Source: Betaproteobacteria bacterium (lineage in GTDB: Bacteria > Pseudomonadota > Gammaproteobacteria > Burkholderiales > SG8-39). From it: 45,722 nucleotides of DNA. Where the stretch lies: positions 1-45,722 of the forward strand of contig SCTX01000056.1 in NCBI GenBank assembly GCA_004298385.1, read 5' to 3'. This document shows positions 14,214 through 45,722 of the stretch, in pieces (position 1 is the stretch's first letter; each line of letters begins with the position of its first letter). A model generated the notes under the pieces. It saw only the letters and a list, made by a program, of their open reading frames with translations. It ran no database searches and was not told the DNA's origin. Made by a program: the position numbers and the translations under genes.

Positions 14214-14990
14214 TCAGCGCGCCCGCAGGCGCGCAGCCGCGTCGAGCCGTATGCACTCGCCGTTCAGGTACGCGTTTTCGCAGATGTACGCACACAGGCT
14301 GGCAAATTCAGCCATGTCGCCGAATCGCTTCGGGAACTCGATCATCGTCGTCAGCGACTCGATCACCTTCGGGCCGAGCGACTGCGCCATCGGCGTGTTG
14401 AACAGGCCCGGAGCGATCGAATTGACGCGCACGCCGATCGCCGCGAGTTCGCGCGCCGCCGGCAGCGACAGACCGACGACGCCAGCCTTGCTCGACGAAT
14501 ACGCGGTCTGCCCGACCTGGCCGTCAAATGCGGCGCCCGACGCAATGTTGACCACGACACCGCGCTCCTCGCCGTTTTCCGGCTCGTTCCTGGCCATTTG
14601 CTCGATGCAGTACGCCATCACCTGGAATGTTCCGACCAGATTAACCATCACGGTGCGCTGGAACTTGCCGCAATTGGATGCGCGTCCACTCTTGTCGAGT
14701 ATCTTCATCGGCGTTGGAATACCCGCACAGTTGACGCAGACGTCGATCCGGCCGAAGCGCTTGACGCACGCCTGCACGCCGGCCGCGACCCCGGCCTCGT
14801 CGGTGACGTCGACCCGCTGGTAGTTTGCGTTTTGCCCGCCCAGTTGCGCGACCAGCGCCGCGCCGGCCTCGTCGTTGAGGTCGAACAGCGCAACTTTGGC
14901 GCCCTTGTCGCGCACGAAATACTCCGCGGTGCGCCGGCCCAGCCCAGACGCGCCGCCCGTGATCAGCGCCACCTTGCCTTGAAGTTTCAT
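14214..14990 (-). CDS. SDR dehydrogenase of the 3-hydroxyacyl-CoA dehydrogenase type II (HSD10) kind
   Basis: 258 residues with a complete classical SDR set: TGGASGLG (11-18), NCAG (87-90), Ser151, Tyr164 and Lys168 (YSSSK). The string IPTPMKILDKSG after NCAG, and GVRVNSIAPGLFNTPM, are typical of bacterial homologues of human HSD17B10, which oxidise 3-hydroxyacyl-CoA, including 2-methyl-branched substrates, with NAD+. It would supply the second oxidation step for the hydratase and thiolase encoded in the same operon. It lies 46 bp after livF and is the last gene of that operon. Some relatives act on other secondary alcohols, so substrate range is uncertain. Confidence 0.88.
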   Translation of the reverse strand: MKLQGKVALITGGASGLGRRTAEYFVRDKGAKVALFDLNDEAGAALVAQLGGQNANYQRVDVTDEAGVAAGVQACVKRFGRIDVCVNCAGIPTPMKILDKSGRASNCGKFQRTVMVNLVGTFQVMAYCIEQMARNEPENGEERGVVVNIASGAAFDGQVGQTAYSSSKAGVVGLSLPAARELAAIGVRVNSIAPGLFNTPMAQSLGPKVIESLTTMIEFPKRFGDMAEFASLCAYICENAYLNGECIRLDAAARLRAR

Positions 14991-15036
14991 GATTCGCCCC
15001 TACGTTCCGCGCGAAGCCCAGGTCGGGCAACGCCGC

Positions 15037-15828
15037 TCAGCCGAGCCAGCGCTTGCGCCGGCGGTAGTGCTTGACCTCGCGATAGCTCTTGCGCCCGCCC
15101 TCGGCGGTCATGCCGAGGTAGAACTCGCGCACGTCCTCGTTGCGCCCGAGCTCGTCGGCCGTGCCCTCGAGCACCACCCGGCCGTTTTCCATCACGTAGC
15201 CGTGATCGGCCAGCTCGAGCGCCACCCGGCTGTTCTGCTCGACCACCAGCAGCGTGGTGCCCTCGGTCTTCAGTCGTGCGAGCAGCGCGAACACGTCCTG
15301 CACCATCATCGGTGCCAGACCCAGCGACGGCTCGTCGATCAGCATTATCTTGGGCACCGCCATCATCGCGCGTCCGATTACCAGCATTTGCTGTTCACCG
15401 CCGGACAGATAGCCGGCGGTGCGCTCGCGCAGTCCACCCAGCGGCGGGATGAAGCTGTAGACGCGATCGAGCCGCCGGCGCAGCTCGGCCGCGCCGGGCG
15501 CTAGGTGGCCGCCGACGATCAGGTTCTGCTCGGCGCTCAGATGGCGCAGCACGCGCCGGCCCTCCATCACGTGCACCAGCCCGCGGCGCACCACCTCAGC
15601 GGGGTCGAGGCCGTCGATGCGCTCTCCTTCGAACGTGATCGACCCGCCGCTGACCTCTCCGTCCTCGGACTCGATGGTGCCCGAGACCGCCTTCAGAGTG
15701 GTGCTCTTGCCGGCGCCGTTGCCCCCTAGGATTGCCACGCAGGTACCCGGCTGAACCGCGAGGGTGATGCCCTTTAGCGCGAGAATCACCTCGCTGTACA
15801 TCACCTCGACATTGTTCAACACGAGCAC
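15037..15828 (-). CDS. LivF-type ABC transporter ATPase with basic C-terminal tail (cassette 1)
   Basis: 263 residues: Walker A GGNGAGKST, signature YLSGGEQQM, Walker B IMLIDEPSLGLAP. It is one of the two ATPases of a branched-chain-amino-acid-type (HAAT) importer. The start codon is GTG at 15828, preceded by GGGGAG; it lies 16 bp after the binding-protein stop. Normal LivF proteins end near the EFYLG motif; this one continues about 25 residues to end KHYRRRKRWLG, a strongly basic tail also found on the LivF proteins at 29062 and 41525 and therefore probably functional. Paired ATPase (LivG) is at 21158. Confidence 0.93.
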   Translation of the reverse strand: MLVLNNVEVMYSEVILALKGITLAVQPGTCVAILGGNGAGKSTTLKAVSGTIESEDGEVSGGSITFEGERIDGLDPAEVVRRGLVHVMEGRRVLRHLSAEQNLIVGGHLAPGAAELRRRLDRVYSFIPPLGGLRERTAGYLSGGEQQMLVIGRAMMAVPKIMLIDEPSLGLAPMMVQDVFALLARLKTEGTTLLVVEQNSRVALELADHGYVMENGRVVLEGTADELGRNEDVREFYLGMTAEGGRKSYREVKHYRRRKRWLG

Positions 15829-18294: not shown

Positions 18295-19182
18295 TCAAAC
18301 CCTCTCGATCGTGCGCCAGCCGAACAGGCCGGTCGGGCGCGCCAGCAGGATCAGCAGCATGATTGCGAAAGGCAGCACCGAACCGACCGCGCCACCCACC
18401 AGCGGGTCCAGATACGCCGTGGCAAGACCCTGGATCACGCCGACGATAACTCCGGCCAGCAGCAGCCCGCCGATCGACTCGAGCCCCGCCAGCAGCGCGA
18501 CCGGCAGTGCCGCGAACCCGATTTCAGAAGCGAGGAAGTTCAGCGATTTGCCGGACAGGAAGACCACCGCGCCCAGCGTCGAGAGCACGCAACCTAGCAC
18601 CCAGGCGAAGGCGATCGAGCGCTTGACCGAGATTCCCATCGACAGCGCAACCTGGTGATCTTCGGCGACGGCGGTCATCGTCAGGCCGGTGCGCGTGCGG
18701 TTGAAGAACCAGGACAAGCCGATGGCCGCGAGCACGGTCAGCACGCCGCCCCACAGCAGGTTGGTCGGAATCATCAACTCGCCGATCACCAGCGGCTGCA
18801 GGGGAAACACGATCGGAAACGGCCGAACCTGCGGGCCGAACGCCACCAGCACGACGCCGCGCAGCAGCACCAGCAGGCCGATCGTGACCATCACCATCGC
18901 AAACACCGACTCGCCGACCAGGCGCGCGAAGAAGATACGCTCGATCAGCAAGCCGACCACGCCGGCCAGCACGAAGGCCAGCGGGATGCCGACGATCATC
19001 GGCAGCCCCATGCTGACAACCATCCACCACTGCAAGAAACCGCCGAGCACAACCAGCTCGCCCTGGGCGAAGTTGAATACCTTGCTGGCGCGGTAGATGA
19101 CGACGAACCCCATTGCGATCAGCGCGTACAGCAAGCCCAGCAGCGCGCCGTTGATCGCGTAGTTGACGAAGTCGATGATCAT
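18295..19182 (-). CDS. LivH-type ABC transporter permease (cassette 1)
   Basis: 295 residues, multi-pass inner-membrane permease. Typical LivH elements: GLLYALIAMGFVVIYRAS, FNFAQGELVVLGGF, the contact loop with AVAEDHQVALSMGISV, and GLESIGGLLLAGVIVGV, ending ARPTGLFGWRTIERV. It forms a heterodimer with the LivM just downstream. Its ATG overlaps the stop of the acyl-CoA synthetase gene by 4 bp (ATGA), so synthesis of permease and synthetase is coupled. The open frame extends far upstream inside the synthetase, but the conserved LivH sequence begins exactly at this ATG. Confidence 0.93.
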   Translation of the reverse strand: MIIDFVNYAINGALLGLLYALIAMGFVVIYRASKVFNFAQGELVVLGGFLQWWMVVSMGLPMIVGIPLAFVLAGVVGLLIERIFFARLVGESVFAMVMVTIGLLVLLRGVVLVAFGPQVRPFPIVFPLQPLVIGELMIPTNLLWGGVLTVLAAIGLSWFFNRTRTGLTMTAVAEDHQVALSMGISVKRSIAFAWVLGCVLSTLGAVVFLSGKSLNFLASEIGFAALPVALLAGLESIGGLLLAGVIVGVIQGLATAYLDPLVGGAVGSVLPFAIMLLILLARPTGLFGWRTIERV

Positions 19183-21161
19183 CGCGCCCCTTCCGTTGCG
19201 GCCGTGCGGTGCTGCGGCGGCGCCTTCCCGGCGGCGGTGGCGGTCACTTCGGTGACTGCCACGTTTGCGTTGAGCACCCCCTTGCGCCCGTCCTGGTAGG
19301 TGACCGCCACGGTGATCGTGACCACGTCCTCGCCCGCGTACAGGCCGTCGATCAGCCGGGCGTAGCGTTCCTCGAGAAAATCCCGGCGCAGCTTGCGCGA
19401 TCGGGTGAGTTCGCCCTCGTCGGGATCCAGTTCCTTGGGGAAATTCGCGAAGCGCAGCACCCGCGCTTGCTCGGGGAGGAAGGCGTTGATGCGGGCGATC
19501 TCGCCCCGGATCAGCTCGCGCACCTCGGGTCGCTGCGACAGGTCGGTGAAAGTCGAGAAACCGATGTTGCGCTCCTCGGCCCAGCGGCCCACTACCTCCA
19601 TGTCGATGTTGATCAGGGCGGCAACGTAATCGCGCCGCTCGTCGCCCAGCGTCATCAGGTCCTTGATGAACGGGCTGAAGCGCAGCCGGGTCTCGATGAA
19701 CTGCGGCGGGAAACCGTGACCCGAACGCAGGCGGCGCATGTCCTTGACCCGTTCGAGGAAGACCAGCTCGCCTCCCCCGGTCTGCGACACCGCGTCGCCG
19801 GTGCGGTACCACTCGCCCTCGAGCGCCTCTGCGGTCTTGTCCGGCTTGCCGTGATAGCCCATGAAGCCGGAGCCGCCCTTGACCAGCAGTTCGCCGTCGT
19901 CCGACACCCGCCACTGCAGCGGCGCGCCATGCCGCGGGTCGCACTTCATCCAGTGACCCACGGTCTCCAGGTCGTACTTCTCGCCCTGATGCAGCGTCAG
20001 CAGCCCGATCTCGGTGGTGCCGTAGGCGTTGCGCAGGTGCACGCCCATCGCGTGGAACAGCTTGAACACCTCGGGCGCCATCGCCGAACCGCCGCACAGC
20101 GTGATCTGGGCACGGACCAGGCCCAGCTTGTCTCGGAGCGGCTCGAGTACCAGCGCCTCGGCCAGCGGATACATCAGCCGCGCCGCGAGCGCCGGCTGCC
20201 GACCCTCGAGCCGGCCGACATTGACCTCTCGCCCGACCGCGACGCCCCAATCGTAGATCGCTCGCCGCACCGGCCCTACATCCAGCATGCGCGCCTGCAC
20301 CACCGACGCGAGGCTCTCCCACTGCCTGGGGCTGAACAGCATCGCCTCGACCGCCAGCTCGCGCAGGTTGGCCAGCACCTGCTCCGGCCGCTCGGGAAAG
20401 TTGACGACCATCGGCACCAGCAGGCCGAGCGTAATGCCGAAAAACTGCTCCGTCGCCCAGGCCGGCGCGATGTAGGTTAGGTACTCGCAGCCCGGCTTGA
20501 AGGCGAGCGCGCCGGTGATGCGTGCGGCGTTGTCGAACAGGTAGCGCTGCGTGAGGGTCACGCCCTTGGGCCGCCCGGTCGTGCCCGAGGTGTAGGAGAG
20601 CACGGCGACATCGTCGGCTCGGCCCGCGGCCACCTCGCATTCGTAGCGACCGGGCTCGCCTGCGTGCACCTCGCGTCCGCTGTGTTGCACGTCCTCGAAC
20701 GAGTGCAGCAGCGGGTCGCGGTAGTTCCACAGGCCCGCGTCGTCCCAGTAGACAATCGCCTTCACCGCGCTCACCTCGCGCGCGACCGCCAGCGCCTTGT
20801 CGACCTGTTCCTGGTCCTGCGCGACGATGATCGTCGTGCCCGAGTCCTGCGCCAGGTAGGCGATCTCGTCGGTGTTCTGGTCCGGATAGAGAGAAACCAC
20901 CGCGGCGCCCAGCGCGTGCGCGGCGTACTCGGTCCAGAAGTGCTCGGGCTCGTTCTCTCCGATCGCCATCACGGCGCCGCCGCGCCTCAGTCCGAGCGCC
21001 TGCAAGCCCAACGCGAGCGAGCGCACGTTGTCCTGCACTTGCGCCCAGGTGAACTCGTGCCAGATGCCGAGCCGCTTATGCCGTTCGCATACGGCTCCGG
21101 GGCTGAGTCTTGCGCGCTCGGCCAGCGCCTGCGCCAGGGTCTGCGCCTGCTCGAGCGTCAT
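19179..21161 (-). CDS. Large AMP-forming acyl-CoA synthetase inside the importer operon (cassette 1)
   Basis: 660 residues, adenylate-forming family, long-chain/bubblegum-like in size. The ATP loop is YTSGTTGRPKG (190-200); YGTTEIG follows as the A5 motif, and EWYRTGD near the hinge. The lysine of the last core motif is kept in ELTRSRKLRR. About 60 further residues follow, ending in beta-like sequence (VAVTYQDGRKGVLNANVAV) that recurs in the synthetases at 31845 and 44357. It makes an acyl-CoA from acid, ATP and CoA. The gene overlaps livG (upstream) and livH (downstream) by 4 bp each, so it is built into the transporter operon; acting on the imported acid is the obvious inference. No membrane segment is evident. 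Confidence 0.92.
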   Translation of the reverse strand: MTLEQAQTLAQALAERARLSPGAVCERHKRLGIWHEFTWAQVQDNVRSLALGLQALGLRRGGAVMAIGENEPEHFWTEYAAHALGAAVVSLYPDQNTDEIAYLAQDSGTTIIVAQDQEQVDKALAVAREVSAVKAIVYWDDAGLWNYRDPLLHSFEDVQHSGREVHAGEPGRYECEVAAGRADDVAVLSYTSGTTGRPKGVTLTQRYLFDNAARITGALAFKPGCEYLTYIAPAWATEQFFGITLGLLVPMVVNFPERPEQVLANLRELAVEAMLFSPRQWESLASVVQARMLDVGPVRRAIYDWGVAVGREVNVGRLEGRQPALAARLMYPLAEALVLEPLRDKLGLVRAQITLCGGSAMAPEVFKLFHAMGVHLRNAYGTTEIGLLTLHQGEKYDLETVGHWMKCDPRHGAPLQWRVSDDGELLVKGGSGFMGYHGKPDKTAEALEGEWYRTGDAVSQTGGGELVFLERVKDMRRLRSGHGFPPQFIETRLRFSPFIKDLMTLGDERRDYVAALINIDMEVVGRWAEERNIGFSTFTDLSQRPEVRELIRGEIARINAFLPEQARVLRFANFPKELDPDEGELTRSRKLRRDFLEERYARLIDGLYAGEDVVTITVAVTYQDGRKGVLNANVAVTEVTATAAGKAPPQHRTAATEGAR

Positions 21162-21922
21162 TGCGCCTCGCCCAGGTAGGCGCGGATCACGTCCGGGTTG
21201 CGCTGCATCTCGGCCGGCGTGCCCTCGGCGATCACGCGTCCGAAGTCCAGCACGACGATGCGGTCGGCCAAGTCCATGACCACGCCCATGTCGTGCTCGA
21301 CCAGCACGACCGGCGTCTTGCGCGCCTCGCGCACGTCGAGGATGAAGCGCGCGAGGTCTTCCTTCTCCTCGGAGTTCATGCCGGCCATCGGCTCGTCCAT
21401 CAACAGAATGCGCGGCTCCTGCGCCAGCGCCCTTCCGAGGTCGACGCGCTTGCGCAAGCCGTAGCCCAGCGTTCCGACACGCTCGTTGCGGATCGACTCG
21501 ATCTCGAGGAATTCGATGATCTCCTCGACCGCGCGCCGGTGCTCGTCCTCCTCGCGCGCCACCCACGGGAAGTAGCAGAACGCCTGCAGGATGTTCGTGC
21601 GCATATGGACGTCGCGACCGACGAGGATGTTCTCGACCACCGTCTGCCCGGCGAACAGGTGCGTGCCCTGGAAGGTGCGGGCGACGCCACTGCGGGCGAC
21701 TTGGTCGACGCGCAGCGACCGGATGGTCTCGCCTTCGAGTTCGACCTGGCCGGAGTGAGGCCGGTAGAAGCCCGACAGCACGTTCAGCAGCGAAGTCTTG
21801 CCGGCGCCGTTGGGACCGATGATCGCCAGCAGCTCGTCCGGCCGAACCTCGACCGTTACGCGGTCCAGCGCGATGACGCCGCCGAAGCGTAGCGTCACGT
21901 CGCGCGCCGCGAGGGGCGTCAT
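21158..21922 (-). CDS. LivG-type ABC transporter ATPase (cassette 1)
   Basis: 254 residues with Walker A GPNGAGKTS, Walker B ILLMDEPMAGMN and the switch histidine in VEHDMGVVM. In place of the LSGGQ signature it has GYGLRKRVDLGRAL; the LivG at 33898 has the same string, unlike the YGQQRRLEIARAL I know from standard LivG proteins. The ATG at 21922 is fixed by a 4-bp overlap with the acyl-CoA dehydrogenase stop, though the frame stays open farther upstream. Its own stop overlaps the synthetase start by 4 bp. With LivF (15037) it powers the LivH-LivM importer. Confidence 0.93.
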   Translation of the reverse strand: MTPLAARDVTLRFGGVIALDRVTVEVRPDELLAIIGPNGAGKTSLLNVLSGFYRPHSGQVELEGETIRSLRVDQVARSGVARTFQGTHLFAGQTVVENILVGRDVHMRTNILQAFCYFPWVAREEDEHRRAVEEIIEFLEIESIRNERVGTLGYGLRKRVDLGRALAQEPRILLMDEPMAGMNSEEKEDLARFILDVREARKTPVVLVEHDMGVVMDLADRIVVLDFGRVIAEGTPAEMQRNPDVIRAYLGEAQ

Positions 21923-23088
21923 GAGAATGCCGACACCCCGAGTGTGTTGCGGCCGATGATCAGCTTCTGGATTTCGGTGGTGCCGTCCGGGATCGGCAGG
22001 ATGCGCGCGTTGCGGAAGTGGCGCTCCACCTTGAAATCCTTGGTGATACCCACGCCGCCGTGGATCTGGATCGCCTTCGAGGTGACGCGCACCGCCATCT
22101 CGGTCGCGTACCACTTCGCCATCGAGGTCTGGGTGTCGCAGCGAACGCCCAAGTCGAGCAGGCGCAGCGCGCGCTGGCACAGCAGCCGCGCGGCATCCAG
22201 CTCGGTGGCCATCTCGGCGATATAGGTTTGCATCAGCTGGTGGCCGGCGATGACCTTGCCGTGCTGGCGACGCTGCTTTGCATATTCGATCGCCTCCTCC
22301 AGCGCCGCCTGCGCGATGCCGACCGCGGTCAACCCGACGAAGACGCGCGCGCTCTCGAACAGCTTCAGCGTCTGGTAGAGGCCCCCTCCCGATCGCCCCA
22401 GCACGTGGCTAACGGGCGCCAACGCGTCGTCGAGGAAAATCTCGCAGGTGGATGCGCTGACGAACCCCATCTTTTCGAGTTCGCGGTGCTGGTAGTTGTC
22501 GCCGTCGCGGTCGACCAGCAGCATGTCCAGTTTGCCGTCGATGCGGCAGACCACTATGGCGAAGTCCGACTGTGCGCCGTTGGAGATCCACAGCTTCTGG
22601 CCGTGCAGCCGGTAGCGGGTACCCTCGAGCGTCGCTCGGGTCTGCACCTCAGCGACACTCGAGCCCGCGTTCGGCTCGGAGATGCAGGAGCAGCCGATGC
22701 GCTGCGCGCGCAGCAACGGCTCCAGGTGGCTCTTCTTGATCTCCGGCGTGCCCAGTTCGACCAGCGTCAACGCGACGTGGCTCTGGATCAGGATCGCGAT
22801 CGCCATGTCCGGCCACGCACGCGCGAGTTCCTCGTACAGCAGCCCGTAGGTGAAGCGATCGATGCCCGGCCCGCCGTCGGCCGCGGGAATCAGGCCGCTG
22901 ACCAGTCCGTAGTCGTCGAGCCGGCGGAACAGATCGAGCATCGCGGCGCGCTCGGGCGGGCAGCCGAGTTTCTCGTACTTGTCGGCCAGCGGCCTCAGCT
23001 CGGCTTCGGCGAACCGGCGAAAGCCGGCGATCGCCAGTCGTTGCTCCTCGCTATAGAGCATCTGCATGACCGGCAGCGTGTCGTTCAT
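21919..23088 (-). CDS. Acyl-CoA dehydrogenase
   Basis: 389 residues, standard length. FAD/substrate motifs: SCISEPNAGSSVAEVQTRA, LWISNGAQSDF, and the C-terminal QIHGGVGITKDFKVER. At the site of the catalytic glutamate of short/medium-chain enzymes (E in YEGT) it has Asp368 in IPDGTTEIQ. An Asp could still act as base, or the base may be elsewhere as in isovaleryl-CoA dehydrogenase. It would introduce the alpha,beta double bond into the acyl-CoA made by the co-encoded synthetase, passing electrons to electron-transfer flavoprotein (genes not in the window). It sits between thiolase (15 bp upstream) and livG (ATGA overlap). Confidence 0.9.
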   Translation of the reverse strand: MNDTLPVMQMLYSEEQRLAIAGFRRFAEAELRPLADKYEKLGCPPERAAMLDLFRRLDDYGLVSGLIPAADGGPGIDRFTYGLLYEELARAWPDMAIAILIQSHVALTLVELGTPEIKKSHLEPLLRAQRIGCSCISEPNAGSSVAEVQTRATLEGTRYRLHGQKLWISNGAQSDFAIVVCRIDGKLDMLLVDRDGDNYQHRELEKMGFVSASTCEIFLDDALAPVSHVLGRSGGGLYQTLKLFESARVFVGLTAVGIAQAALEEAIEYAKQRRQHGKVIAGHQLMQTYIAEMATELDAARLLCQRALRLLDLGVRCDTQTSMAKWYATEMAVRVTSKAIQIHGGVGITKDFKVERHFRNARILPIPDGTTEIQKLIIGRNTLGVSAFS

Positions 23089-23103
23089 GGTCTCATCTCC
23101 AGT

Positions 23104-24342
23104 TCAGCGTCCGAGCACGGTGACGCAGGCAACCGCTTCCTCGACCCCGTGCAGGCCGCCGCCGTTCTCCGCCAGCGCGATGCATGCGCCCGCCACCTGG
23201 CGCCGGCCGGCCTCGCCGCGCAACTGGGTCACCAACTCGGCGATCTGTGCCAGGCCCGTCGCGCCGATCGGGTGGCCTTTCGATTCCAGCCCCCCCGATG
23301 GGTTCACCGGGATGCGCCCGCCGATGCGCGTGTCGCCGCGCTCGCTGACCGGCCCGCCGTCGCCGAACGCGCAGAACCCCAGATTCTCGATCTGGATGAT
23401 CTCGCCGACCGCGGTCGCGTCGTGCACCTCGGCCACCGACACGTCCGCCGGGCCGAGGCCCGCGAGCTCGTAGGCGCGCTTCGCCGCCAGGTGCGTGCAG
23501 TGCTGGGCGACCTCCTCGGGCAGGCGGTCCGAACCGGTCTGCATCACCGAGGCGAGCACGCGAACCGCGCGGCTGCGGTCGGCGCCGAGCCGCTTCAGCG
23601 CCGCTTCGGTGCACAGCACCGCGGCGGCCGCGCCGTCGCTGATCGGCGCGCACATCGGTAGCGTGAGCGGGTAGGTAATCGGCGGCGCGCCGAGCACTTC
23701 GTCAAGCGTGAACGCCTTGCGGTACTGCGACAAGGGATTCTCGACCGAATGCTCGTGGTTCTTCGCGGCCACCGCCGCAAACTGGCGCTGCGTGGTGCCG
23801 AAGCGGCGCATGTGGTAGCGGGCGAACGCCGCGTACACGTCCATGAACACGCTATAGGGCCGCGGCGACGTGGTTCCGGGCGGCACTTCGACACCTTCGC
23901 CGAGCTTGACTAGCCGCGCGCGAATCGCGTCGGCGCTGGTGATGTCCCAGCCGCTGTCGAACGCGCTGAACATGCGCTCGCGGTCGTCGGAGAACATCTT
24001 CTCTGCGCCGACGGCGAGCGCCACGTCGCCCGCGCCCGCGCGCAGGAAGTTCAGCGCGAGGTTGAACGCGGAACTCGCACTCGCGCAGGCGTTCTCGACG
24101 TTGACCACCGGGATGCGCTGGATGCCCATTTCGCGCAGCGCGATCTGCCCGCGGATAATGTGCTGGCCCTCCATGTGGCCCTGCACCGCGTTGGCGAAGA
24201 ACGCGCCCTCGAGATCGCCGGTCTGGCAGCCCGCGTCCTTCAGCGCAGCCTCCACCGACAGCCGCGTCAGGTCCTTGACGCTGAGGTTGGCGAGCTTGCC
24301 GAACGGCGTCATGCCGACGCCGATCACGTAGACGTTGCCCAT
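23104..24342 (-). CDS. Thiolase-family acyl-CoA acyltransferase (SCP2-type), copy 1
   Basis: 412 residues. The nucleophilic Cys86 lies in VENACASASSAF, and the active-site histidine in GGLESKGHPIGATG. The late motif that holds the second cysteine in ordinary biosynthetic thiolases reads ALAENGGG here, as in the SCP2/lipid-transfer thiolase branch. The protein would cleave a 3-oxoacyl-CoA with CoA, completing a beta-oxidation round. ATG 24342 is 2 bp after the enoyl-CoA hydratase stop; the frame is open beyond, but conserved sequence (VYVIGVGMTPFGK) begins here. It is paralogous to the thiolase at 26490, with the same position of Cys86. Confidence 0.92.
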   Translation of the reverse strand: MGNVYVIGVGMTPFGKLANLSVKDLTRLSVEAALKDAGCQTGDLEGAFFANAVQGHMEGQHIIRGQIALREMGIQRIPVVNVENACASASSAFNLALNFLRAGAGDVALAVGAEKMFSDDRERMFSAFDSGWDITSADAIRARLVKLGEGVEVPPGTTSPRPYSVFMDVYAAFARYHMRRFGTTQRQFAAVAAKNHEHSVENPLSQYRKAFTLDEVLGAPPITYPLTLPMCAPISDGAAAAVLCTEAALKRLGADRSRAVRVLASVMQTGSDRLPEEVAQHCTHLAAKRAYELAGLGPADVSVAEVHDATAVGEIIQIENLGFCAFGDGGPVSERGDTRIGGRIPVNPSGGLESKGHPIGATGLAQIAELVTQLRGEAGRRQVAGACIALAENGGGLHGVEEAVACVTVLGR

Positions 24343-24344
24343 CG

Positions 24345-25124
24345 CTAGTACCCCTTGAAAATCGGTTTGCGCTTCTCGCGGAACGCGGCGAGGCCTTCGT
24401 GCATGTCGTAGGAGCGCGAGTGTTCGCGCAGGTTGAGCATTTCGTCGGTGAGCGCCGCCTGCTGGCTCTGGTCCGTCGAACGGTTGGCCACCGCCTTCAT
24501 CCGGCGCAGCACCGCGGGACTCTTTTGCGCGAGCTTCTCGACGAATTCCTCCACCGCCGACGCGAGCTCGGCGTCGGGCGTCACCCGGTTCACCAGTCCC
24601 ATTTCCATCATCTCGCGCGCCGACAGGTGGTCGCCGCTGAACAGCAGGTACTTCGCGCGGTTCAGGCCGATGCGCCGCGGCAGGAGCGCTGCGCCGCCGG
24701 CGCCGGGAAACACGCCGAAGTTGGAGTGGGCGTCGCCCAGCCTCGCGCCTTCGGCCGCGAACACCAAGTCGCACGCCATCACCAGTTCCATGCCGCCGGC
24801 AAGCGCAAGGCCGTTGACCGCCGCGATCACCGGCTTCGGAAACGCGCGCAGCTCGTCGAAGATCGTCCGCACCACCTCCAGGAAATCCGGGTCGCCGGGC
24901 TTGGCGCGCGCCTGCATCTCGGCCACCTCCTTCAGATCGGCGCCCGCGCAGAATGCGCGGCCGATTCCCGTGATCACGAGCGCGCGCACCGCGTCGTCGG
25001 ATCGTGCCTGCGCGAGCGTATCACCCAGCTCGCGCATCAGGCCGAACGAAAGGGCATTCAGCGCATCCGGCCGGTTCAGCGTGATCCATGCGCCCGCGCC
25101 GCGGCGCTCGTAGTTGACTGCCAT
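24345..25124 (-). CDS. Enoyl-CoA hydratase/isomerase family protein
   Basis: 259 residues. Crotonase signatures: ITLNRPDALNALS, GRAFCAGADLKEV and LALAGGMELVMACDLVFA. The first catalytic glutamate is present (GGME); at the second position, normally Glu in QPE, a histidine occurs (GDAH). Activity may therefore be hydration of an unusual substrate or isomerisation. It is the promoter-proximal gene of the operon running to the SDR at 14214 (hydratase, thiolase, dehydrogenase, importer with synthetase, SDR), giving nearly a full beta-oxidation spiral with its own uptake system. Confidence 0.9.
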   Translation of the reverse strand: MAVNYERRGAGAWITLNRPDALNALSFGLMRELGDTLAQARSDDAVRALVITGIGRAFCAGADLKEVAEMQARAKPGDPDFLEVVRTIFDELRAFPKPVIAAVNGLALAGGMELVMACDLVFAAEGARLGDAHSNFGVFPGAGGAALLPRRIGLNRAKYLLFSGDHLSAREMMEMGLVNRVTPDAELASAVEEFVEKLAQKSPAVLRRMKAVANRSTDQSQQAALTDEMLNLREHSRSYDMHEGLAAFREKRKPIFKGY

Positions 25125-25162
25125 GCCGTCCCCCTCGCTGTCGCCCGATGTTTCGCAGCCAG

Positions 25163-25189
25163 TCTATACTCCGATTTAGGCGAGGGCAA
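25163..25189 (-). promoter_or_regulatory. Possible promoter of the beta-oxidation/importer operon
   Basis: Leftward TTGCCC (25184-25189) and TATAGA (25163-25168) are separated by 15 bp, shorter than the ideal 17. It is the best sigma-70-like pair in the gap before the enoyl-CoA hydratase. No copy of the CTAAC...GTTAG operator was seen in this gap. Confidence 0.3.
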
Positions 25190-25278
25190 TAGCGGGCCAC
25201 GGGGGAACGTCGGGCCTGCACGGCGAGACCACCGTGGTAGCATTCCAAGAGGATTATTGCCGACAGAGGGGGTGAGCC

Positions 25279-25360
25279 ATGACTACCGTCTCCGACCGCG
25301 CCGTCGAAACCCCGATCCTGCTGCGTTCGCGCCAGGGCTCCGTGCTGACCCTGAGGCTGA
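25279..25360 (+). pseudogene. Orphan 5' end of an enoyl-CoA hydratase gene
   Basis: A plus-strand ATG with GAGGGGGTGAG just upstream opens a frame reading MTTVSDRAVETPILLRSRQG and then SVLTLRL, a recognisable crotonase N-terminus in which NRPE should follow. Instead, after LTLRL at about 25356-25360 the sequence switches to the antisense of the metallo-hydrolase gene, whose stop codon is at 25361-25363. Only about 27 codons of the gene remain. This looks like a rearrangement junction that cut a crotonase gene and brought cassette 2 next to it. The fragment is not the start of either intact crotonase in the window. Confidence 0.55.
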
Positions 25361-27731: not shown

Positions 27732-27769
27732 AACGTACCTCCCAAGACCGTGTGAACCGCCGCCGTTGT

Positions 27770-29008: not shown

Positions 29009-29055
29009 CGCTGTCTCCTCGAAAAAAATCGTTGCCATCGCCGTCTCCTCGAAAA
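28996..29055 (-). repeat. Tandem 30-nt repeat carrying Shine-Dalgarno and ATG
   Basis: Two adjacent 30-nt units (28996-29025 and 29026-29055) differ at a single base. Each contains GAGGAGA followed by an ATG and the codons for ATI, so both ATGs (29038, 29008) are in the same frame and would add the decapeptide ATIFFEETAM-type unit. A further partial copy is visible toward the end of livF. High identity implies a recent duplication or continuing slippage. Confidence 0.85.
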
Positions 29056-30967: not shown

Positions 30968-31852
30968 CTAGATCCTTTCGATGGTCTTCCAGCCGAACAG
31001 CCCGGTGGGGCGGATCAGCAGGATGACGACCATGATCACGAACGGGAACACCGCGGCGACGCCACCGTGGAAGATCGGGTCGAGGAAATAGGCGGCCAGC
31101 CCCACCGCGATGCCGACAATGAGGCCGCCCAGGACGACCCCGCCGATCGATTCGAGTCCCGCGAGCAGCGCCACCGGCAGCGCGGCGAAGCCGATGTCCG
31201 AGGCGAGGAACGTCATGCCCTTGCCGTTGAGGAAGATGATCGCAGCCAGCGTCGACAGCAGGCCGCTGATGCCCCATGCTACTGCGATCGAGCGTTTGAC
31301 TGAGATGCCGAGGGACAACGCTATCTGGTGGTCTTCCGCGACGGCGGTCATCTCCAACCCGAGCTGGGTGCGGTTGAAGAACCAGGAGGCCGCCGCCGCG
31401 ACCACCAGCGTTACCGCCGCGCCGATCACCAGCGCCCGGTCGAACACCAGCGGCCCGACCTTGACCGCCGCCATCGGCAGAACGGCGGGGAAGAACCGTA
31501 CCTCCGGTCCCCAGGCGACCAGCACAACCCCGCGGATAAAGATCAGCAAGCCGATCGTGACCATCACGAACGCGAACAACTCCTCGCCGACCAGGGGCCG
31601 CAAGATTAGCCGCTCGATCAACACGCCGAGCAGCAAGCTCGAGAGTAGGGCGAGAGGGACCGAGACCCAAACCGGCAGGTCGAACGCCGACATGAAGGTC
31701 CAGACCAGGAAGGCGCCGACGATGACTATTTCGCCCTGGGCGAAATTGAACACCCGCGCCGAGCGATAAATGATCACGAAGCTCATCGCGATCAGCGCGT
31801 AGAGCAGGCCCGTCAACGCGCCGTTGGCCACGTACGACAGCAGGCTAAGCAT
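30968..31852 (-). CDS. LivH-type ABC transporter permease (cassette 2)
   Basis: 294 residues from ATG 31852. LivH features: GLLYALIAMSFVIIYRSA, VFNFAQGEIVIVG, AVAEDHQIALSLGISVKRS and GLESIGGVVLGGLIVGI, ending RPTGLFGWKTIERI. The start overlaps the end of the synthetase gene by 8 bp. The frame is open for another 28 codons upstream, but those lie inside the synthetase and lack LivH character. With LivM it forms the translocation channel. Confidence 0.92.
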   Translation of the reverse strand: MLSLLSYVANGALTGLLYALIAMSFVIIYRSARVFNFAQGEIVIVGAFLVWTFMSAFDLPVWVSVPLALLSSLLLGVLIERLILRPLVGEELFAFVMVTIGLLIFIRGVVLVAWGPEVRFFPAVLPMAAVKVGPLVFDRALVIGAAVTLVVAAAASWFFNRTQLGLEMTAVAEDHQIALSLGISVKRSIAVAWGISGLLSTLAAIIFLNGKGMTFLASDIGFAALPVALLAGLESIGGVVLGGLIVGIAVGLAAYFLDPIFHGGVAAVFPFVIMVVILLIRPTGLFGWKTIERI

Positions 31853-33897: not shown

Positions 33898-34722
33898 TCA
33901 TCGACGCACCTCGGCGCCCAGGTAGGCCTTGATCACCGCCGGATCGCCCTTGATCGCCTGCGGGCCGCCCCGCGCTATCACGTGACCCCAGTCGAGCACG
34001 GTGATCCGGTCCGCGATGTCCATCACGACGTGCATGTCGTGCTCGACGATGACGACCGGAATGTCGAGCGCTTCGCGGATGTCGATCACGAAGCGGACCA
34101 TATCCTCCTTTTCCTCGAGGTTCATGCCCGCCATCGGCTCGTCCATCAGCAATACCCTCGGGTCCATCGCCAGCGCGCGCCCGAGGTCGACCCGCTTGCG
34201 CAGGCCGTAACTGAGCGAGCCGACGAGCTTGTGGCGGATGTTCTTGATCTCGAGGAAGTCGATGATCTCCTCGACGCGGCGACGCTCGCGCAGCTCTTCC
34301 GCGTGGGCCCAGCCGCGGTAGACGAAACCCTGCAGCGCGCCGGTCTTCATGTGCATATGCCTGCCGGTGAGCAGGTTGTCGACCACGCTAAGGCCGGCAA
34401 ACAACTGCAGCCCCTGAAACGTGCGCCCGACCCCGAGCCGCGCGATGCGGTGCGGCGGCAGACCGGTTATGTCCTGCTCGCGAAAGAACAAGCGCCCCTG
34501 CTGCGGCAGGCTGAACCCGTTCATGCAATTGAGCGTGCAACTCTTGCCGGCGCCGTTGGGCCCGATAATCGCGTGGATCTCGCTGGCGCCGATTTCGAAT
34601 GAGACGTCCGACAGCGCGGTGACCCCGCCGAAACGCAAGGTGATGCCATCGGCGCGCATGATCGGCGCGGTGGCCGGAGCCGGCACTGCGGCCAGTTCGG
34701 GCGCCGCGGCCAACTCAGGCAT
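33898..34722 (-). CDS. LivG-type ABC transporter ATPase (cassette 2)
   Basis: 274 residues from ATG 34722, with an Ala/Pro-rich N-terminal extension of about 20 residues (PELAAAPELAAVPAPATAP) before the ATPase domain. Walker A GPNGAGKSC, Walker B VLLMDEPMAGMN, switch VEHDMHVVM; the signature is SYGLRKRVDLGRAL, as in the cassette 1 LivG. It overlaps the end of the short synthetase gene by 8 bp and precedes the large synthetase by 10 bp, so the order synthetase-LivG-synthetase-LivH is translated almost continuously. Confidence 0.92.
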   Translation of the reverse strand: MPELAAAPELAAVPAPATAPIMRADGITLRFGGVTALSDVSFEIGASEIHAIIGPNGAGKSCTLNCMNGFSLPQQGRLFFREQDITGLPPHRIARLGVGRTFQGLQLFAGLSVVDNLLTGRHMHMKTGALQGFVYRGWAHAEELRERRRVEEIIDFLEIKNIRHKLVGSLSYGLRKRVDLGRALAMDPRVLLMDEPMAGMNLEEKEDMVRFVIDIREALDIPVVIVEHDMHVVMDIADRITVLDWGHVIARGGPQAIKGDPAVIKAYLGAEVRR

Positions 34723-36238
34723 CGGCGAATTCCTGCTTGACCCGGGCGCGATCGAGCAAGCCTTGGGCGTTCTTCGGCAGCGCGGCGCTGAACACCAGGT
34801 GTTTGGGCCGCTTGAAGCGCGCAATGCGATTGCCGACGAACTCGATCAGCTCCGCGGCCGCAACCGCCTGCCCCGCGCGGCAGACGCACACCGCCTTGAT
34901 CGCCTCGCCCCACTGGGCGTCGGGCACGCCGAACACCACCGCCTCGGCAACGGCCGGGTGCTCGAGCAGCGCTTTCTCGACCTCGGCGGGGTAGACGTTT
35001 TCGCCACCCGGTTTGATCAGCTCCTTCGCCGGCGTTCGCCCGCCGTACCACAGGTAACCTTCATCGTCGAAACGACCCATGTCGCCGGTGTGGTGCCAAC
35101 CGTTGCGGAAGGTGAATTCGTTGTCGGCATCGCAGTTCCAGTAACCACTGAACACCACCGGTCCGCGCACCACGATCTCGCCGGACTGGCCGGCCGGCAG
35201 CAACTGGTCCAGGTCGTCGACGATACAGACGCGGTTGAGCATGGTCGGCTTGCCGGCCGAACCGGGCCGATCGCGGAACGGGGCGATGGTGACCATGCCC
35301 GACACCTCGGACTGCCCATACCCGGCCCAGAAGCGCGCCGACGGACACAGGGATTCGAAGCGGCTGATCGTGTCCGGGGTGTCGATTCCGGTGACGTGGC
35401 GCAGGCTAGTCAGGTCATCGCCGTCCTTGGCCGCCTTGTCGAGCAGGGTGCCCAGCATCGGCGGGAACTCGGCGAACACGCTGACCCTCTCGGCGCTGAC
35501 CGCCTGCATCACCGCCTGCGGATCGAACCGGGGCAACACCACGGTGGCGCCCCCGGCCTGCTGCACCGCCAGCATCAGTCCGAGTCCGGACACGTGAAAC
35601 AGCGGCAGCACGCCGAGGTGCACGTCCTGCTCAGACAGATTCCAGCACCCGGCGAGTTGCAGGTTCGCGGCCAGCAGTCCGGCGTGCGACAGCAGCGCGC
35701 CGCGCGGCCGGCCGCCCACGGCTGCCGTATGGATGATCACGAAGCCGCTGTCGCCGGTGACGTCGGTGGCCGGCGCGCCCGCGGCCGCGCCGACGCGCGC
35801 GAGATCTTCGAGGGCGCCGAAGGCGCCGCTTGCCGCGCCGAGCGAGAAACAGCGCTCGACAAACGGAAACCGGTCGCGCGCCGCTTCCATGATCGGCAGG
35901 TATTCGGCGCCCGCGACGATCGCTTTTGGCATAGTGTCGGTGATCACGTAGGCAATCTCTTCGGCGCTGAGACGCCAGTTCACCGGCACCAGGATCAGGC
36001 CGAGGCGCGCCGCGGCGCCGTACAGGTCCACGTATGCCAGACAATTTTGCGCCAGCACCGCGACGCGTTCGCCGGCGACTAGCCCGATGCCCGCCAGACC
36101 GGCGGCAAGGCGCTCGACCCGCAGCGCGTATTCGCGGTGGCTGATGCGCTCGCCGCCGGCAACGAACGCGAGCCGCTCGCCGTGCAACCGCGCATTGCGT
36201 TCGATGACGTCAAACAGGGTGAAATCACGCAGTCCCAT
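34715..36238 (-). CDS. Acyl-CoA synthetase-like protein with degenerate catalytic motifs
   Basis: 507 residues, the class I AMP-binding fold in the usual fatty-acid/aryl-CoA ligase size. The A5 motif is intact (GYGQSEVSG), as are HHTGDMGRFD and the hinge KELIKPGGENVYPAEVE. However the ATP loop reads HTAAVGGRPRG (170-180), lacking the Ser/Thr-rich stretch and with Arg for Lys, and the last core motif reads PKNAQGLLDR, with Leu494 where the adenylation lysine is expected. It may therefore be impaired in adenylation, work as a thioesterifying or binding partner, or be decaying. GGAGGAG precedes the ATG. It is the first structural gene after tetR. Confidence 0.85.
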   Translation of the reverse strand: MGLRDFTLFDVIERNARLHGERLAFVAGGERISHREYALRVERLAAGLAGIGLVAGERVAVLAQNCLAYVDLYGAAARLGLILVPVNWRLSAEEIAYVITDTMPKAIVAGAEYLPIMEAARDRFPFVERCFSLGAASGAFGALEDLARVGAAAGAPATDVTGDSGFVIIHTAAVGGRPRGALLSHAGLLAANLQLAGCWNLSEQDVHLGVLPLFHVSGLGLMLAVQQAGGATVVLPRFDPQAVMQAVSAERVSVFAEFPPMLGTLLDKAAKDGDDLTSLRHVTGIDTPDTISRFESLCPSARFWAGYGQSEVSGMVTIAPFRDRPGSAGKPTMLNRVCIVDDLDQLLPAGQSGEIVVRGPVVFSGYWNCDADNEFTFRNGWHHTGDMGRFDDEGYLWYGGRTPAKELIKPGGENVYPAEVEKALLEHPAVAEAVVFGVPDAQWGEAIKAVCVCRAGQAVAAAELIEFVGNRIARFKRPKHLVFSAALPKNAQGLLDRARVKQEFADA

Positions 36239-43466: not shown

Positions 43467-44354
43467 TTAGATCCTCTCGATATCATGCCGGCCGAACAGG
43501 CCGTGCGGCCGGATCAGGATGGTCAGGATCAGCGTCATGGCAATCACTAGATCGCGGCTGCCGCCGCCGACCAGCGGATCCAGGTAGCCCGATGCCACGC
43601 CCTCGAAAATGCCGAGCAGCAGGCCGGCCAGGATGGCGCCGCCGATGCTGTCCAGCCCCCCGAGCACGGCGACGGCCACGCCCTTGAGCAGCAGCAGCGC
43701 CAGCGACTGGTCCACCCCCTGCACCGATCCCCACAGCACGCCGGCGGTGGTGGCCACCACCGAGGACAGTGCCCAGGACAGCGCCACCCCGCGCTCGACC
43801 GAAATACCCACCGACCAGGACGCGGTGTAGTCGTCGGAGATGGCGCGCAGCACGATGCCCATGCGGGTGCGGAAGAACAGCAGGAAGAGCACAAACAGCG
43901 CAATGGCCACCACGGCGCCCACCACGTAGGTGCGGTTCAGCAGCAGCGGCCCCAGGAACAGCGGCGTGTCGCTGATGCCGAGTTGCATCGGTCGGTTGGT
44001 TCCGCCCCAGATGGTCATCGAGGTAGCGCGCACGAAGATGTCCAGTCCCAGTGTCATCATCAGGATCATGATGATCGGCCGTCCGGCCAGCCGGCGCAGC
44101 GCCACTCGCTCGATGCCCACGCCGACCAGGAACATCGTCGCCAGCGCCAGCGGAATCGCCACCCACAGGGGCGCGCCGAAGCCGCCGGCGATGGCCAGCA
44201 CCACGTAGCCGCCGAGCATCGTCATCGCACCCTGGGCCAGGTTGGGCACCGCGGAAGACTTGTAGATCAGCACGATCCCCATGGCGACCAGCGAATACAT
44301 CAGTCCGGTCATGGCGCCGTTGATAGCCAACTCGCCGAACAGCGTCAGATCCAT
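43467..44354 (-). CDS. LivH-type ABC transporter permease (cassette 3)
   Basis: 295 residues. LivH features: GLMYSLVAMGIVLIYKSSAV, NLAQGAMTMLGGYVV, the contact loop AISDDYTASWSVGISVERG, GLDSIGGAILAGLLLGI, and the ending IRPHGLFGRHDIERI. The string NLAQG replaces the NFAQGE of cassettes 1 and 2. It starts 2 bp after the synthetase stop, so the synthetase-livH junction is again close to overlapping. Confidence 0.93.
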   Translation of the reverse strand: MDLTLFGELAINGAMTGLMYSLVAMGIVLIYKSSAVPNLAQGAMTMLGGYVVLAIAGGFGAPLWVAIPLALATMFLVGVGIERVALRRLAGRPIIMILMMTLGLDIFVRATSMTIWGGTNRPMQLGISDTPLFLGPLLLNRTYVVGAVVAIALFVLFLLFFRTRMGIVLRAISDDYTASWSVGISVERGVALSWALSSVVATTAGVLWGSVQGVDQSLALLLLKGVAVAVLGGLDSIGGAILAGLLLGIFEGVASGYLDPLVGGGSRDLVIAMTLILTILIRPHGLFGRHDIERI

Positions 44355-44356
44355 GA

Positions 44357-45722
44357 TTAAGATTCCCGCACCGTAAGCAGGCGCTCGGTAATGCCGATGT
44401 CACCGGATTCGTAGGTGATCCGCGCCTTCATTGTAACCGCGCTCTGGCCGGCGTAGATCGCGTCGACGATCGGCGCGTAGCGCTCTTCCACCACGCTGCG
44501 GCGCAACTTGCGCGTGCGCGTGATTTCTCCATCATCCGCGTCGAACTCCTTGTGCAGGCACACAAAGTGGCGCAGTTTGAGCCCTTCCGGCAGCGTGGCG
44601 TTGACGCGCTTGACCGCGGCGGCGATCAGTTCGATCACCTCGGGTTCTTGGGACAGGTCGGCGTAGGACATGTACGAGATACCGCGCATTTCGGCCCAAT
44701 GGCCGACTGTTTCCTTGTCGATGCAGATGATCGCCGCCAGCGTGTCGCGGCCGCGCCCGAGTACCGCCGCGTCCTTGACATACGGGCTGAACTTCAGGCG
44801 ATTCTCTATGTAATTGGGGATGTAGCGCTCGCCTTTGGCGGTATGCACCACTTCCGACAGGCGGCCGAGCACCACCAGGTGGCCGTCGGCTTCGCGATAA
44901 CCGGCGTCGCCGGTGTGCAGCCAGCCATCCTCAAGCGCTTCGCGCGAGGCTTCTTCCTGTTTGTAATAGCCACTGAACACGCTCTCCGAGCGGATCAGGA
45001 TCTCGCCGCTATCGCTGATCCTGATGTCGACGCCCGGCAGCGGGTTGCCGACAGTGTGCAGGCGGACCTCGCCGATGTCCTGTATGGCGTTGAAGGCGCT
45101 GGTCTCGGTCTGGCCGTAGAGTTGCCGCAGCTTCACGCCGAGCGCGCGGTAGAAGACGAAGGTGTCCTCTCCGATCGCCTCGCCGCCGGTGAAGGCGTGG
45201 CGCAGGCGGGTCAGGCCGAGTTGGTCCTTGATCGGGCCGCACACCAGCAACTCGCCGAGCGGCCGCAGAAGGCGCTCCTTCAAGGTCGGCTGACCTCCTT
45301 CGAGCTTGCGCCGTTCGGCCGCGAGCGCGGAGTTCATGAACAGGTCGTAGATCCACTTCTTCAGCCGGGTCGAGTCCTCCATGCGCACCTGGATGGTGGT
45401 CAGCATGTTGTCCCAGCTTCGCGGCGCGGCCAGATATAAAGTGGGGGCAATCTCGCGCAGGTCGTGCAGCACCGTTTCCTGGCGCTCGGGAATGTTGATG
45501 GTGAAACGCAGCGCGATACCGGCGCCCATGGTAAACGCAAAGTCGCCGATCCAAGCGATCGGCAGATAGGCGAGAACGCTTTCGTCGAACGCGAAGGCGC
45601 CGCCGCGGTAGGCATTGCGCACTCCGGCGAGCAGGTTGCGGTGGTTCAGCAGCACGCCCTTGGGCTTGCCGGTGGTGCCCGAGGAGTGCACGAACACCGC
45701 CCGGCCCGAAGGCCCGGCGGTG
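44357..45722 (-). CDS. Large AMP-forming acyl-CoA synthetase (cassette 3), 5' end beyond the window
   Basis: About 454 C-terminal residues are visible; the N-terminal ~200 lie outside the window. The ATP loop VHSSGTTGKPKG is at the very edge, followed by YGQTETS (A5), WLHTGDAGYRE, and EITRTRKLRR with the final-motif lysine. The C-terminal extension (MKARITYESGDIG) corresponds in position to those of the synthetases at 19179 and 31845. As in the other cassettes it directly precedes livH. The matching livG is presumably upstream, outside the window. The frame is open to the last base, so it is incomplete rather than broken. Confidence 0.9.
   Translation of the reverse strand, partial: TAGPSGRAVFVHSSGTTGKPKGVLLNHRNLLAGVRNAYRGGAFAFDESVLAYLPIAWIGDFAFTMGAGIALRFTINIPERQETVLHDLREIAPTLYLAAPRSWDNMLTTIQVRMEDSTRLKKWIYDLFMNSALAAERRKLEGGQPTLKERLLRPLGELLVCGPIKDQLGLTRLRHAFTGGEAIGEDTFVFYRALGVKLRQLYGQTETSAFNAIQDIGEVRLHTVGNPLPGVDIRISDSGEILIRSESVFSGYYKQEEASREALEDGWLHTGDAGYREADGHLVVLGRLSEVVHTAKGERYIPNYIENRLKFSPYVKDAAVLGRGRDTLAAIICIDKETVGHWAEMRGISYMSYADLSQEPEVIELIAAAVKRVNATLPEGLKLRHFVCLHKEFDADDGEITRTRKLRRSVVEERYAPIVDAIYAGQSAVTMKARITYESGDIGITERLLTVRES

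What the first reader, a model, noticed from the sequence alone, without database searches (positions are those of the whole stretch)
14214..45722. Acyl-CoA synthetase built into a Liv-type importer operon, three times over
Seen: in two complete cassettes the order is livG - large synthetase - livH - livM, with junctions of -4/-4 bp and +10/-8 bp; in the third the synthetase stops 2 bp before livH. The three synthetases share size class, a lysine-bearing ELTRSRKLRR-type motif and an unusual C-terminal extension. Known: Liv/HAAT importers normally carry amino acids, and synthetases such as FadD can pull fatty acids inward by trapping them as CoA esters. Inference: these are import-and-activation units in which a carboxylic acid leaves the permease and is thioesterified at once, possibly by a synthetase docked on the ATPases. 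A stable physical complex of this kind would be new to my knowledge.
Basis: partly seen in the sequence, partly recalled or inferred. Interest (0 to 1): 0.75.

Follow-up and report, generated by a model that had tools for sequence, protein, structure and literature searches.

The report
ABC importers paired with acyl-CoA synthetase
A widespread branch of bacterial importers usually labelled "branched-chain amino acid" carries its own acyl-CoA synthetase gene and an extra tail on one ATPase, which suggests machines that import carboxylic acids and activate them at once; whether importer and enzyme touch is still open.

Summary
The window holds three Liv/HAAT cassettes with a built-in acyl-CoA synthetase (ACS); the genome holds nine, beside eleven Liv cassettes without an ACS of this kind. 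The ACS forms one clade (support 1.0): 107 of 108 members have liv genes on the same stretch, in nine complete gene orders. ACS and transporter trees agree as well as transporter subunits agree with each other (r 0.88-0.90 versus 0.81-0.93). New here: every LivF of these cassettes (102 of 102) has a 19-28 residue basic-aromatic C-terminal tail (KHYKRRKRWL type), absent from 42 LivFs outside them. A tail peptide searched blind in 349 genomes hit 57 foreign genomes, all with the ACS; 64 of 66 hits lie within 8.2 kb of it, the other two at contig ends. The C-terminal ACS extension is real but confined to some gene orders. AtuA and biotin-carboxylase genes suggest terpenoid acids as substrate. Import plus activation is well supported; physical docking is unproven (AlphaFold gave no confident contact). 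Tail-less Liv cassettes near ordinary CoA ligases also exist here (5 of 11).

The parts
33898..34722 (-). LivG2, ATPase of cassette 2
   Evidence: PF00005 + PF12399; junctions
31845..33887 (-). ACS2, acyl-CoA synthetase of cassette 2 (680 aa)
   Evidence: PF00501, PF23562; AlphaFold pLDDT 92.1, pTM 0.90, C-terminal beta-hairpin 629-654
30968..31852 (-). LivH2 permease
   Evidence: PF02653
29908..30963 (-). LivM2 permease with C-tail ...RIWPFPH
   Evidence: PF02653; tail
29062..29859 (-). LivF2 ATPase with C-tail KSFKDVKHYKRRKRWLG
   Evidence: PF00005; tail
27770..29074 (-). SBP2, periplasmic binding protein (start uncertain)
   Evidence: PF13458
21158..21925 (-). LivG1
   Evidence: PF00005 + PF12399; start taken from homologue match
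19179..21161 (-). ACS1 (660 aa)
   Evidence: PF00501, PF23562
18295..19182 (-). LivH1
   Evidence: PF02653
17238..18290 (-). LivM1 with C-tail ...RLWPFPY
   Evidence: PF02653
15845..17203 (-). SBP1
   Evidence: PF13458
15037..15828 (-). LivF1 with C-tail KSYREVKHYRRRKRWLG
   Evidence: PF00005
44357..45722 (-). ACS3, 5' end cut by the contig end
   Evidence: PF00501, PF23562; contig C83 ends here
43467..44354 (-). LivH3
   Evidence: PF02653
42390..43463 (-). LivM3 with C-tail ...VWPFGYARK
   Evidence: PF02653
41525..42403 (-). LivF3 with C-tail FRDVKHYRRRKRWLT (start inferred)
   Evidence: PF00005
37437..41394 (-). three tandem binding proteins of cassette 3 (86-89% identical)
   Evidence: PF13458; identities
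21919..27845 (-). beta-oxidation block between cassettes 2 and 1: thiolase, MBL-fold, ECH, thiolase, acyl-CoA dehydrogenase (some starts inferred)
34715..36238 (-). second synthetase of the ordinary PF13193 type, first gene of the run
10195..13795 (-). biotin carboxylase, biotin carrier (MCC-type BT domain, just below its Pfam cut-off), carboxyltransferase
7..1896 (-). AtuA-family protein (acyclic terpene utilisation)
   Evidence: PF07287, E 1.7e-149

Best explanation
These cassettes are a distinct branch of HAAT-type ABC importers for carboxylic acids, each with its own acyl-CoA synthetase as a sixth component. A binding protein captures the acid, LivHM with LivGF pump it in, and the co-made synthetase converts it at once to the CoA thioester, which traps it and feeds the neighbouring beta-oxidation genes. 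Shown: lasting co-inheritance of synthetase and importer through many gene-order changes, matching trees, and LivF and LivM tails that mark these importers. Inferred: that the substrate is the carboxylic acid which the synthetase activates; in this window probably an isoprenoid (terpenoid) acid, because of AtuA, an MCC/geranyl-CoA-carboxylase-like set and SCP2-type thiolases. Not shown: that the synthetase binds the importer.
For: Window and genome anatomy. ACS clade: 102 linked cassettes plus 6 more members, support 1.0, 55 other homologues outside. Nine complete gene orders among the 102 cassettes. Tree agreement: ACS against LivF/G/H/M r 0.88-0.90 over 99 cassettes, Liv subunits among themselves 0.81-0.93; 53 dereplicated 0.82-0.86 with permutation maxima of at most 0.21, eight paralogues of this genome 0.71-0.91. 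Blind tail search: 57 of 57 foreign tail genomes have the ACS. Second tail type: 15 strong hits in 14 genomes, all with ACS. Catabolic context.
Against: No substrate, transport or enzyme activity is measured. A single common origin (one parsimony change for the tail) explains the shared tails by descent alone. L237 carries a clade ACS without liv genes on its 13.4 kb stretch; L219 and L249 have the ACS 6-7 kb from the liv genes. Activation near a Liv importer does not need this ACS or the tail: 5 of the 11 tail-less Liv cassettes of this genome have an ordinary (PF13193-like) CoA ligase within about 3 kb, and L108 (Streptomyces) has an ACS outside the clade 1.4 kb upstream of tail-less liv genes. 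No natural ACS-Liv fusion in 175 loci, although Liv-Liv joined frames occur. Few residues distinguish clade from other ACS (5 positions).
Confidence: 0.8

Rival explanations
1. Physical complex: the basic-aromatic C-tail of LivF (perhaps with the LivM WPF tail) recruits the synthetase to the cytoplasmic face, so that the acid is thioesterified as it leaves the permease.
For: Tail on 102 of 102 ACS-linked LivFs, absent from 42 LivFs outside such cassettes, among them two that lie in a second Liv set directly upstream of an ACS cassette (L179, L184); tailed LivFs without a visible ACS were met only at contig ends; tail-less importers near ordinary CoA ligases show that the tail tracks this ACS clade, not CoA activation in general; the nearest solved LivF homologue 1ji0 ends where the tail begins; tail net charge +4 to +10.
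Against: AlphaFold of a natural LivF-stop-ACS read-through (L231): tail region pLDDT about 58 falling to 32, pTM 0.73, no confident placement. No acidic docking surface identified. Common descent could explain the correlation.
Confidence: 0.35
2. No complex: the ACS is only co-expressed and traps the acid by mass action (vectorial acylation in the loose sense); the tails have another role, such as lipid contact, LivF-LivM contact or regulation of the ATPase.
For: Same co-inheritance data; tails are basic and aromatic, as membrane-contact tails often are (general knowledge); LivM tails co-vary with LivF tails by subgroup; AlphaFold without a confident contact; tail-less Liv cassettes beside other CoA ligases.
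Against: Mere co-expression does not by itself explain why tails are confined to importers that have this ACS and were seen in every one of them.
Confidence: 0.45
3. Ordinary branched-chain amino acid importers with a hitch-hiking synthetase gene.
For: Annotation as branched-chain amino acid permeases; PF02653 and PF13458 domains.
Against: Kept together in nine complete gene orders and in named loci of three phyla (phyla recalled from family names); tree agreement equal to that of real subunits; curated E. coli-type LivF, LivM and LivH cut-offs not met.
Confidence: 0.05

Closest known systems
HAAT / Liv ABC importers (E. coli LivFGHMK; TCDB 3.A.1.4, recalled)
   Same: Two PF02653 permeases, two ATPases, PF13458 binding protein
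   Different: Own ACS; LivF and LivM tails; below NCBIfam cut-offs for E. coli LivF, LivM and LivH; other substrate inferred
Peroxisomal ABC transporter CTS/ABCD with LACS6/7 (PMC6767901, passages seen)
   Same: ABC transporter whose substrate must be activated by an acyl-CoA synthetase on the receiving side, reported there to interact with it
   Different: Eukaryotic ABCD transporter with thioesterase activity, not a HAAT importer; relatedness of the parts was not tested
FadL/FadD vectorial acylation (E. coli; recalled)
   Same: Acid pulled in by CoA esterification
   Different: No ABC importer there; synthetase not encoded with the transporter (recalled)
Pimelate ABC transporter with pimeloyl-CoA ligase of neighbouring locus number (ABZR87_RS12600-20 and RS12625, Ralstonia sp. 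CL21; PMC12543098, section 7 part 1 and passages read)
   Same: RB-TnSeq links an ABC transporter and a CoA ligase to one carboxylic acid
   Different: Sequences were not compared here; whether that ABC system is HAAT or of this clade is unknown

Membership tests
HAAT/Liv ABC importer | Two PF02653 permeases per cassette | tested here: met
HAAT/Liv ABC importer | LivG with PF12399 tail, and LivF | tested here: met
   Cassettes 1 and 2; cassette 3 lacks LivG because the contig ends
HAAT/Liv ABC importer | PF13458 binding protein | tested here: met
E. coli-type high-affinity branched-chain amino acid importer (NCBIfam models) | Score over curated cut-offs for LivF, LivM and LivH | tested here: not met
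   LivF1 210 of 441 bits, LivM2 112 of 366, LivH1 79 of 379 (one copy of each tested)
HAAT/Liv ABC importer | Transport of hydrophobic amino acids | not testable with these tools
   no assay
Acyl-CoA synthetase (ANL superfamily) | PF00501 and C-terminal subdomain over cut-off; catalytic residues kept | tested here: met
   PF00501 and PF23562 over cut-off; T207, S208, G209, K215, E400, D472, R487, K606 invariant in 49 sequences (their catalytic roles recalled); fold matches adenylating enzymes
FadD11 family (NF038343), best NCBIfam hit | Score over 950 bits | tested here: not met
   241.5, 266.6 and 227.5 bits (the third is a fragment)
Acyclic terpene utilisation (Atu) gene set | AtuA present | tested here: met
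   window 7-1896, PF07287
Acyclic terpene utilisation (Atu) gene set | Carboxylase acting on geranyl-CoA | tested here: inconclusive
   biotin carboxylase, biotin carrier with a sub-threshold BT_MCC_alpha match and carboxyltransferase present; substrate specificity not resolved

The most novel reading that the evidence does not exclude
A bacterial ABC importer class in which an acyl-CoA synthetase is a true sixth subunit: the LivF C-tail holds it at the exit of LivHM, so that import and thioesterification form one coupled, ATP-driven group translocation for fatty, terpenoid or dicarboxylic acids, a bacterial counterpart of peroxisomal ABCD-LACS coupling evolved in another ABC family.
Probability: 0.3. 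Interest if true: 0.85.

Novelty: new variant of a known kind. Interest (0 to 1): 0.63.

Why it matters
Many importers annotated as "branched-chain amino acid" systems in Proteobacteria would be carboxylic-acid importers wired to activation, recognisable from a short LivF tail. That would correct annotation at scale, suggest how fatty, dicarboxylic and terpenoid acids may enter such cells, and give a simple tail-deletion test of whether uptake and CoA activation form one machine.

Tried and rejected
The C-terminal ACS extension as the general dock: rejected, in 57 of 102 cassettes only (55 of 55 G-ACS-H-M-F and ACS-G-H-M-F, 2 of 3 ACS-H-M-F, 0 of 44 in the other orders, one of these, L052, being cut by its contig end).

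The KLRR-type lysine motif as a mark of this group: rejected, 48 of the 61 homologues outside the counted cassettes have it, six of the 61 being clade members.

Natural ACS-Liv fusions (Rosetta stone): none in 175 loci; joined Liv-Liv open frames were found in L108, L148 and L152.

LivF-ACS interface by AlphaFold: inconclusive. ACS-LivG read-through: the alignment put the C-terminal half of most ACS rows onto LivG, so it was not folded; ACS2 alone was folded instead.

ACS signature: only D137, L140, E273, N507 and I535 distinguish the clade at the thresholds used.

Literature: ten library searches. Nothing in their listings pointed to a description of this synthetase-Liv unit or of the LivF tail; I saw titles and abstract starts, and passages or a section of four papers. 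The library is open-access only. Binding-protein sequences matched no solved structure that names a substrate other than branched-chain amino acids (SBP1 and one of the tandem proteins searched).

The check added: 5 of 11 tail-less cassettes near an ordinary CoA ligase, the L108 case, and contig ends close to five of the eleven.
Full report
What is in the window. On the minus strand there are two complete Liv/HAAT cassettes and one cut by the contig end, each with a large AMP-forming acyl-CoA synthetase (ACS) next to LivH and, in the two complete ones, between LivG and LivH. From 36.2 to 14.2 kb the genes form one tight run: a second synthetase (PF13193 type), LivG2, ACS2, LivH2, LivM2, LivF2, SBP2, thiolase, MBL-fold protein, ECH, thiolase, acyl-CoA dehydrogenase, LivG1, ACS1, LivH1, LivM1, SBP1, LivF1, SDR; the largest gap among them is 236 bp (with some inferred starts). 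The window is the whole contig C83, so ACS3 lacks its start.

In the same genome. PF02653 finds 41 places. I fetched 19 stretches around the liv genes outside the window and around the other strong ACS hits and typed them with the window. ACS-linked cassettes: the three of the window, L145, L146, L147, L154 and L155. A ninth is split: L142 (LivH-LivM-LivF) and L157 (LivG-ACS) both start at contig ends, and a genus mate has this order intact (L240). Eleven Liv cassettes have no ACS of this kind: L140, L141, L143, L144, L148-L153, L156. Two limits apply: in five of them (L140, L141, L149, L153, L156) a contig ends within 1.6 kb of the outermost liv gene, so a more distant ACS could be missed; and five (L143, L144, L148, L151, L156) have an ordinary PF13193-like CoA ligase within about 3.1 kb, against 5 of 102 ACS-linked cassettes with one within 6 kb. 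L158 held only a LivM fragment and was not counted.

Wider survey. Of the 80 best named loci, typed, 25 are in liv operons (L031-L052, L062, L068, L102), one (L104) is cut within the ACS, and 54 have an ACS that is not in such an operon; these last are at most 30% identical to ACS1. One of the 54, L108 (Streptomyces), has tail-less liv genes starting 1.4 kb downstream. The linked ones include a Saprospiraceae (L052) and a Smithellaceae (L040) genome. In 349 genomes of the phylum, 59 (own included) have the ACS at E <= 1e-60; the search scored only three candidates per genome. I fetched 75 stretches and 18 more. Requiring an ACS plus at least three Liv genes gave 102 cassettes (the stretches were not added). 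Ignoring binding proteins they show these orders: ACS-G-H-M-F 37, H-M-G-F-ACS 21, G-ACS-H-M-F 18, G-H-M-F-ACS 9, ACS-H-M-F-G 8, ACS-H-M-F 3, G-F-ACS-M-H 2, H-M-F-G-ACS 2, M-H-G-F-ACS 1, F-G-ACS-H-M 1. On plasmids 79 records match, most of them of alphaproteobacterial genera; one (L281, the only one opened) has LivG-ACS-LivH-LivM-SBP-LivF downstream of methylcrotonoyl-CoA carboxylase and HMG-CoA lyase genes.

One clade. In a tree of 163 ACS sequences (102 linked plus 61 set aside as unlinked) a clade with support 1.0 holds all 102 and six of the 61: L045, L157, L226 (liv genes adjacent, cassette cut by a contig end), L219 and L249 (liv genes 6-7 kb away) and L237, which has no liv gene on its stretch. 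The other 55 lie outside: the 54 above and L224 (G251). L104 was too short and was dropped.

Trees agree. Patristic distances of ACS against LivF, LivG, LivH and LivM correlate at r 0.877, 0.899, 0.889 and 0.888 over the 99 cassettes that have all five; the Liv subunits among themselves give 0.807-0.930. With 53 dereplicated cassettes the ACS values are 0.82-0.86, and the largest value among 2000 permutations each is 0.21. Among the eight paralogous cassettes of this genome, where species history cancels, they are 0.71-0.91 (LivG: 21 pairs, the others 28). The ACS behaves like a transporter subunit.

The LivF tail. All LivFs of the 102 cassettes end in a tail of 19-28 residues after the YLG motif, net charge +4 to +10: KHYKRRKRWL, KQYRRSRRWYG, RLYRKKRRW or RRWKKKKTWR types. 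LivFs of the eleven other cassettes of this genome have none of these; nine end at or within a few residues of the YLG position, L149 and L150 have longer ends of another kind. In a LivF tree from core columns only (150 LivFs), 108 tailed ones form a single clade (support 0.99, one change). It holds the 102 linked LivFs and six not scored as linked, all of which are near an ACS or at a contig end: L142, L219, L228, L249, L264, L270. The 42 tail-less LivFs are in no ACS cassette of this clade; those were seen with 1.5 kb flanks only, and two (L179, L184) lie in a second Liv set directly upstream of an ACS cassette, an internal control.

Blind reverse test. A 35-residue tail peptide hit 58 of 349 genomes (57 foreign). 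All 57 have the ACS; G251 has an ACS hit but no tail, and its ACS lies outside the clade. Of 66 foreign tail hits, 64 lie within 8.2 kb of an ACS hit; the other two (G388, G508) sit on contigs that end within the cassette, with the missing part on another contig of the same genome. The genome-level overlap has a hypergeometric probability near 7e-66, but genomes are not independent. The second tail type gave 15 hits at E <= 2.2e-9 in 14 genomes, all with ACS; two hits without a listed ACS nearby were fetched and have one (L282, L283). In a class-wide sample of 143 genomes nine foreign ones had tail hits: six show the ACS in the same cassette (G166, five) and three end at the contig (L284, L288, L289). 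In 12 genomes with 125 LivF-family hits, 11 coincide with tail hits, and all 11 are beside an ACS. LivM shows a parallel mark: a WPF-like end in 81 of 81 cassettes outside the H-M-G-F-ACS order, and FxRQKxF in 19 of 21 of that order; of 17 LivMs not scored as linked, four have such an end (L142, L219, L249, and a second Liv set cut by the contig end in L048) and 13 do not. The nearest solved LivF homologue, 1ji0, ends where the tail would begin.

Structure. ACS2 folds with pLDDT 92.1 and pTM 0.90 as an adenylating enzyme, nearest to carboxylic acid reductase adenylation domains and luciferases, with a beta-hairpin at 629-637/643-654 as the C-terminal extension. The LivF-ACS read-through of L231 gave good domains, but the tail region only at pLDDT 58 falling to 32, and pTM 0.73: no evidence for docking, no proof against it. 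The alignment there was mostly unpaired (5 joined rows of 109).

Substrate. The window holds an AtuA-family gene, a biotin carboxylase, a biotin carrier, a carboxyltransferase, two thiolases whose best NCBIfam hits are lipid-transfer-protein models, ECH, acyl-CoA dehydrogenase and SDR genes. That suggests an isoprenoid acid. Leads only, not sequence-matched here: transposon mutants in an ABC multidrug or branched-chain amino acid transporter (three mutants) were linalool-growth deficient in Thauera linaloolentis (PMC4847356, one passage seen) and LivH insertions are listed with impaired growth on monoterpenes in Castellaniella defragrans (PMC5876002, table passages seen); RB-TnSeq links ABC transporters to pimelate and to C7-C8 fatty acids in Ralstonia and Cupriavidus (PMC12543098, section 7 part 1 and passages read).

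Verdict. A real, widespread branch of HAAT importers with its own acyl-CoA synthetase and diagnostic tails, for which the literature searches named under Tried and rejected showed no description. Functional coupling is likely; physical coupling is open and easy to test by tail deletion.

Noticed in passing
window 37437-41394: Three tandem periplasmic binding proteins, 86-89% identical, beside cassette 3; recent duplication, perhaps substrate diversification.
   Followed up: partly
window 3531-6129: MoxR-type ATPase and VWA-domain pair resembling MadB/MadC, below the NCBIfam cut-offs, near the AtuA gene.
   Followed up: no
window 7-1896: AtuA-family protein of acyclic terpene utilisation.
   Followed up: partly
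L143, L144, L148, L151, L156: Tail-less Liv cassettes of the same genome with an ordinary PF13193-like CoA ligase within about 3 kb: import next to activation may be commoner than the tailed type alone.
   Followed up: partly
L108 8481-14883: Streptomyces ACS outside the clade, 1.4 kb upstream of a joined LivH-LivM-LivF frame and LivG without the tail; possibly an independent pairing.
   Followed up: partly
L148, L152: Other joined Liv open frames without ACS: LivM-LivG (L148), LivH-LivM (L152).
   Followed up: no
L237, ACS from about 2540: The one clade ACS with no liv gene on its stretch, behind what looks like a RecQ-type helicase gene (judged by eye); possibly a relocated synthetase.
   Followed up: partly
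L291 8616 onwards: LivF beside an ACS with a degenerate tail (KYYHRRKPAFT) in a 1.1 Mb genome; may show tail decay under genome reduction.
   Followed up: no
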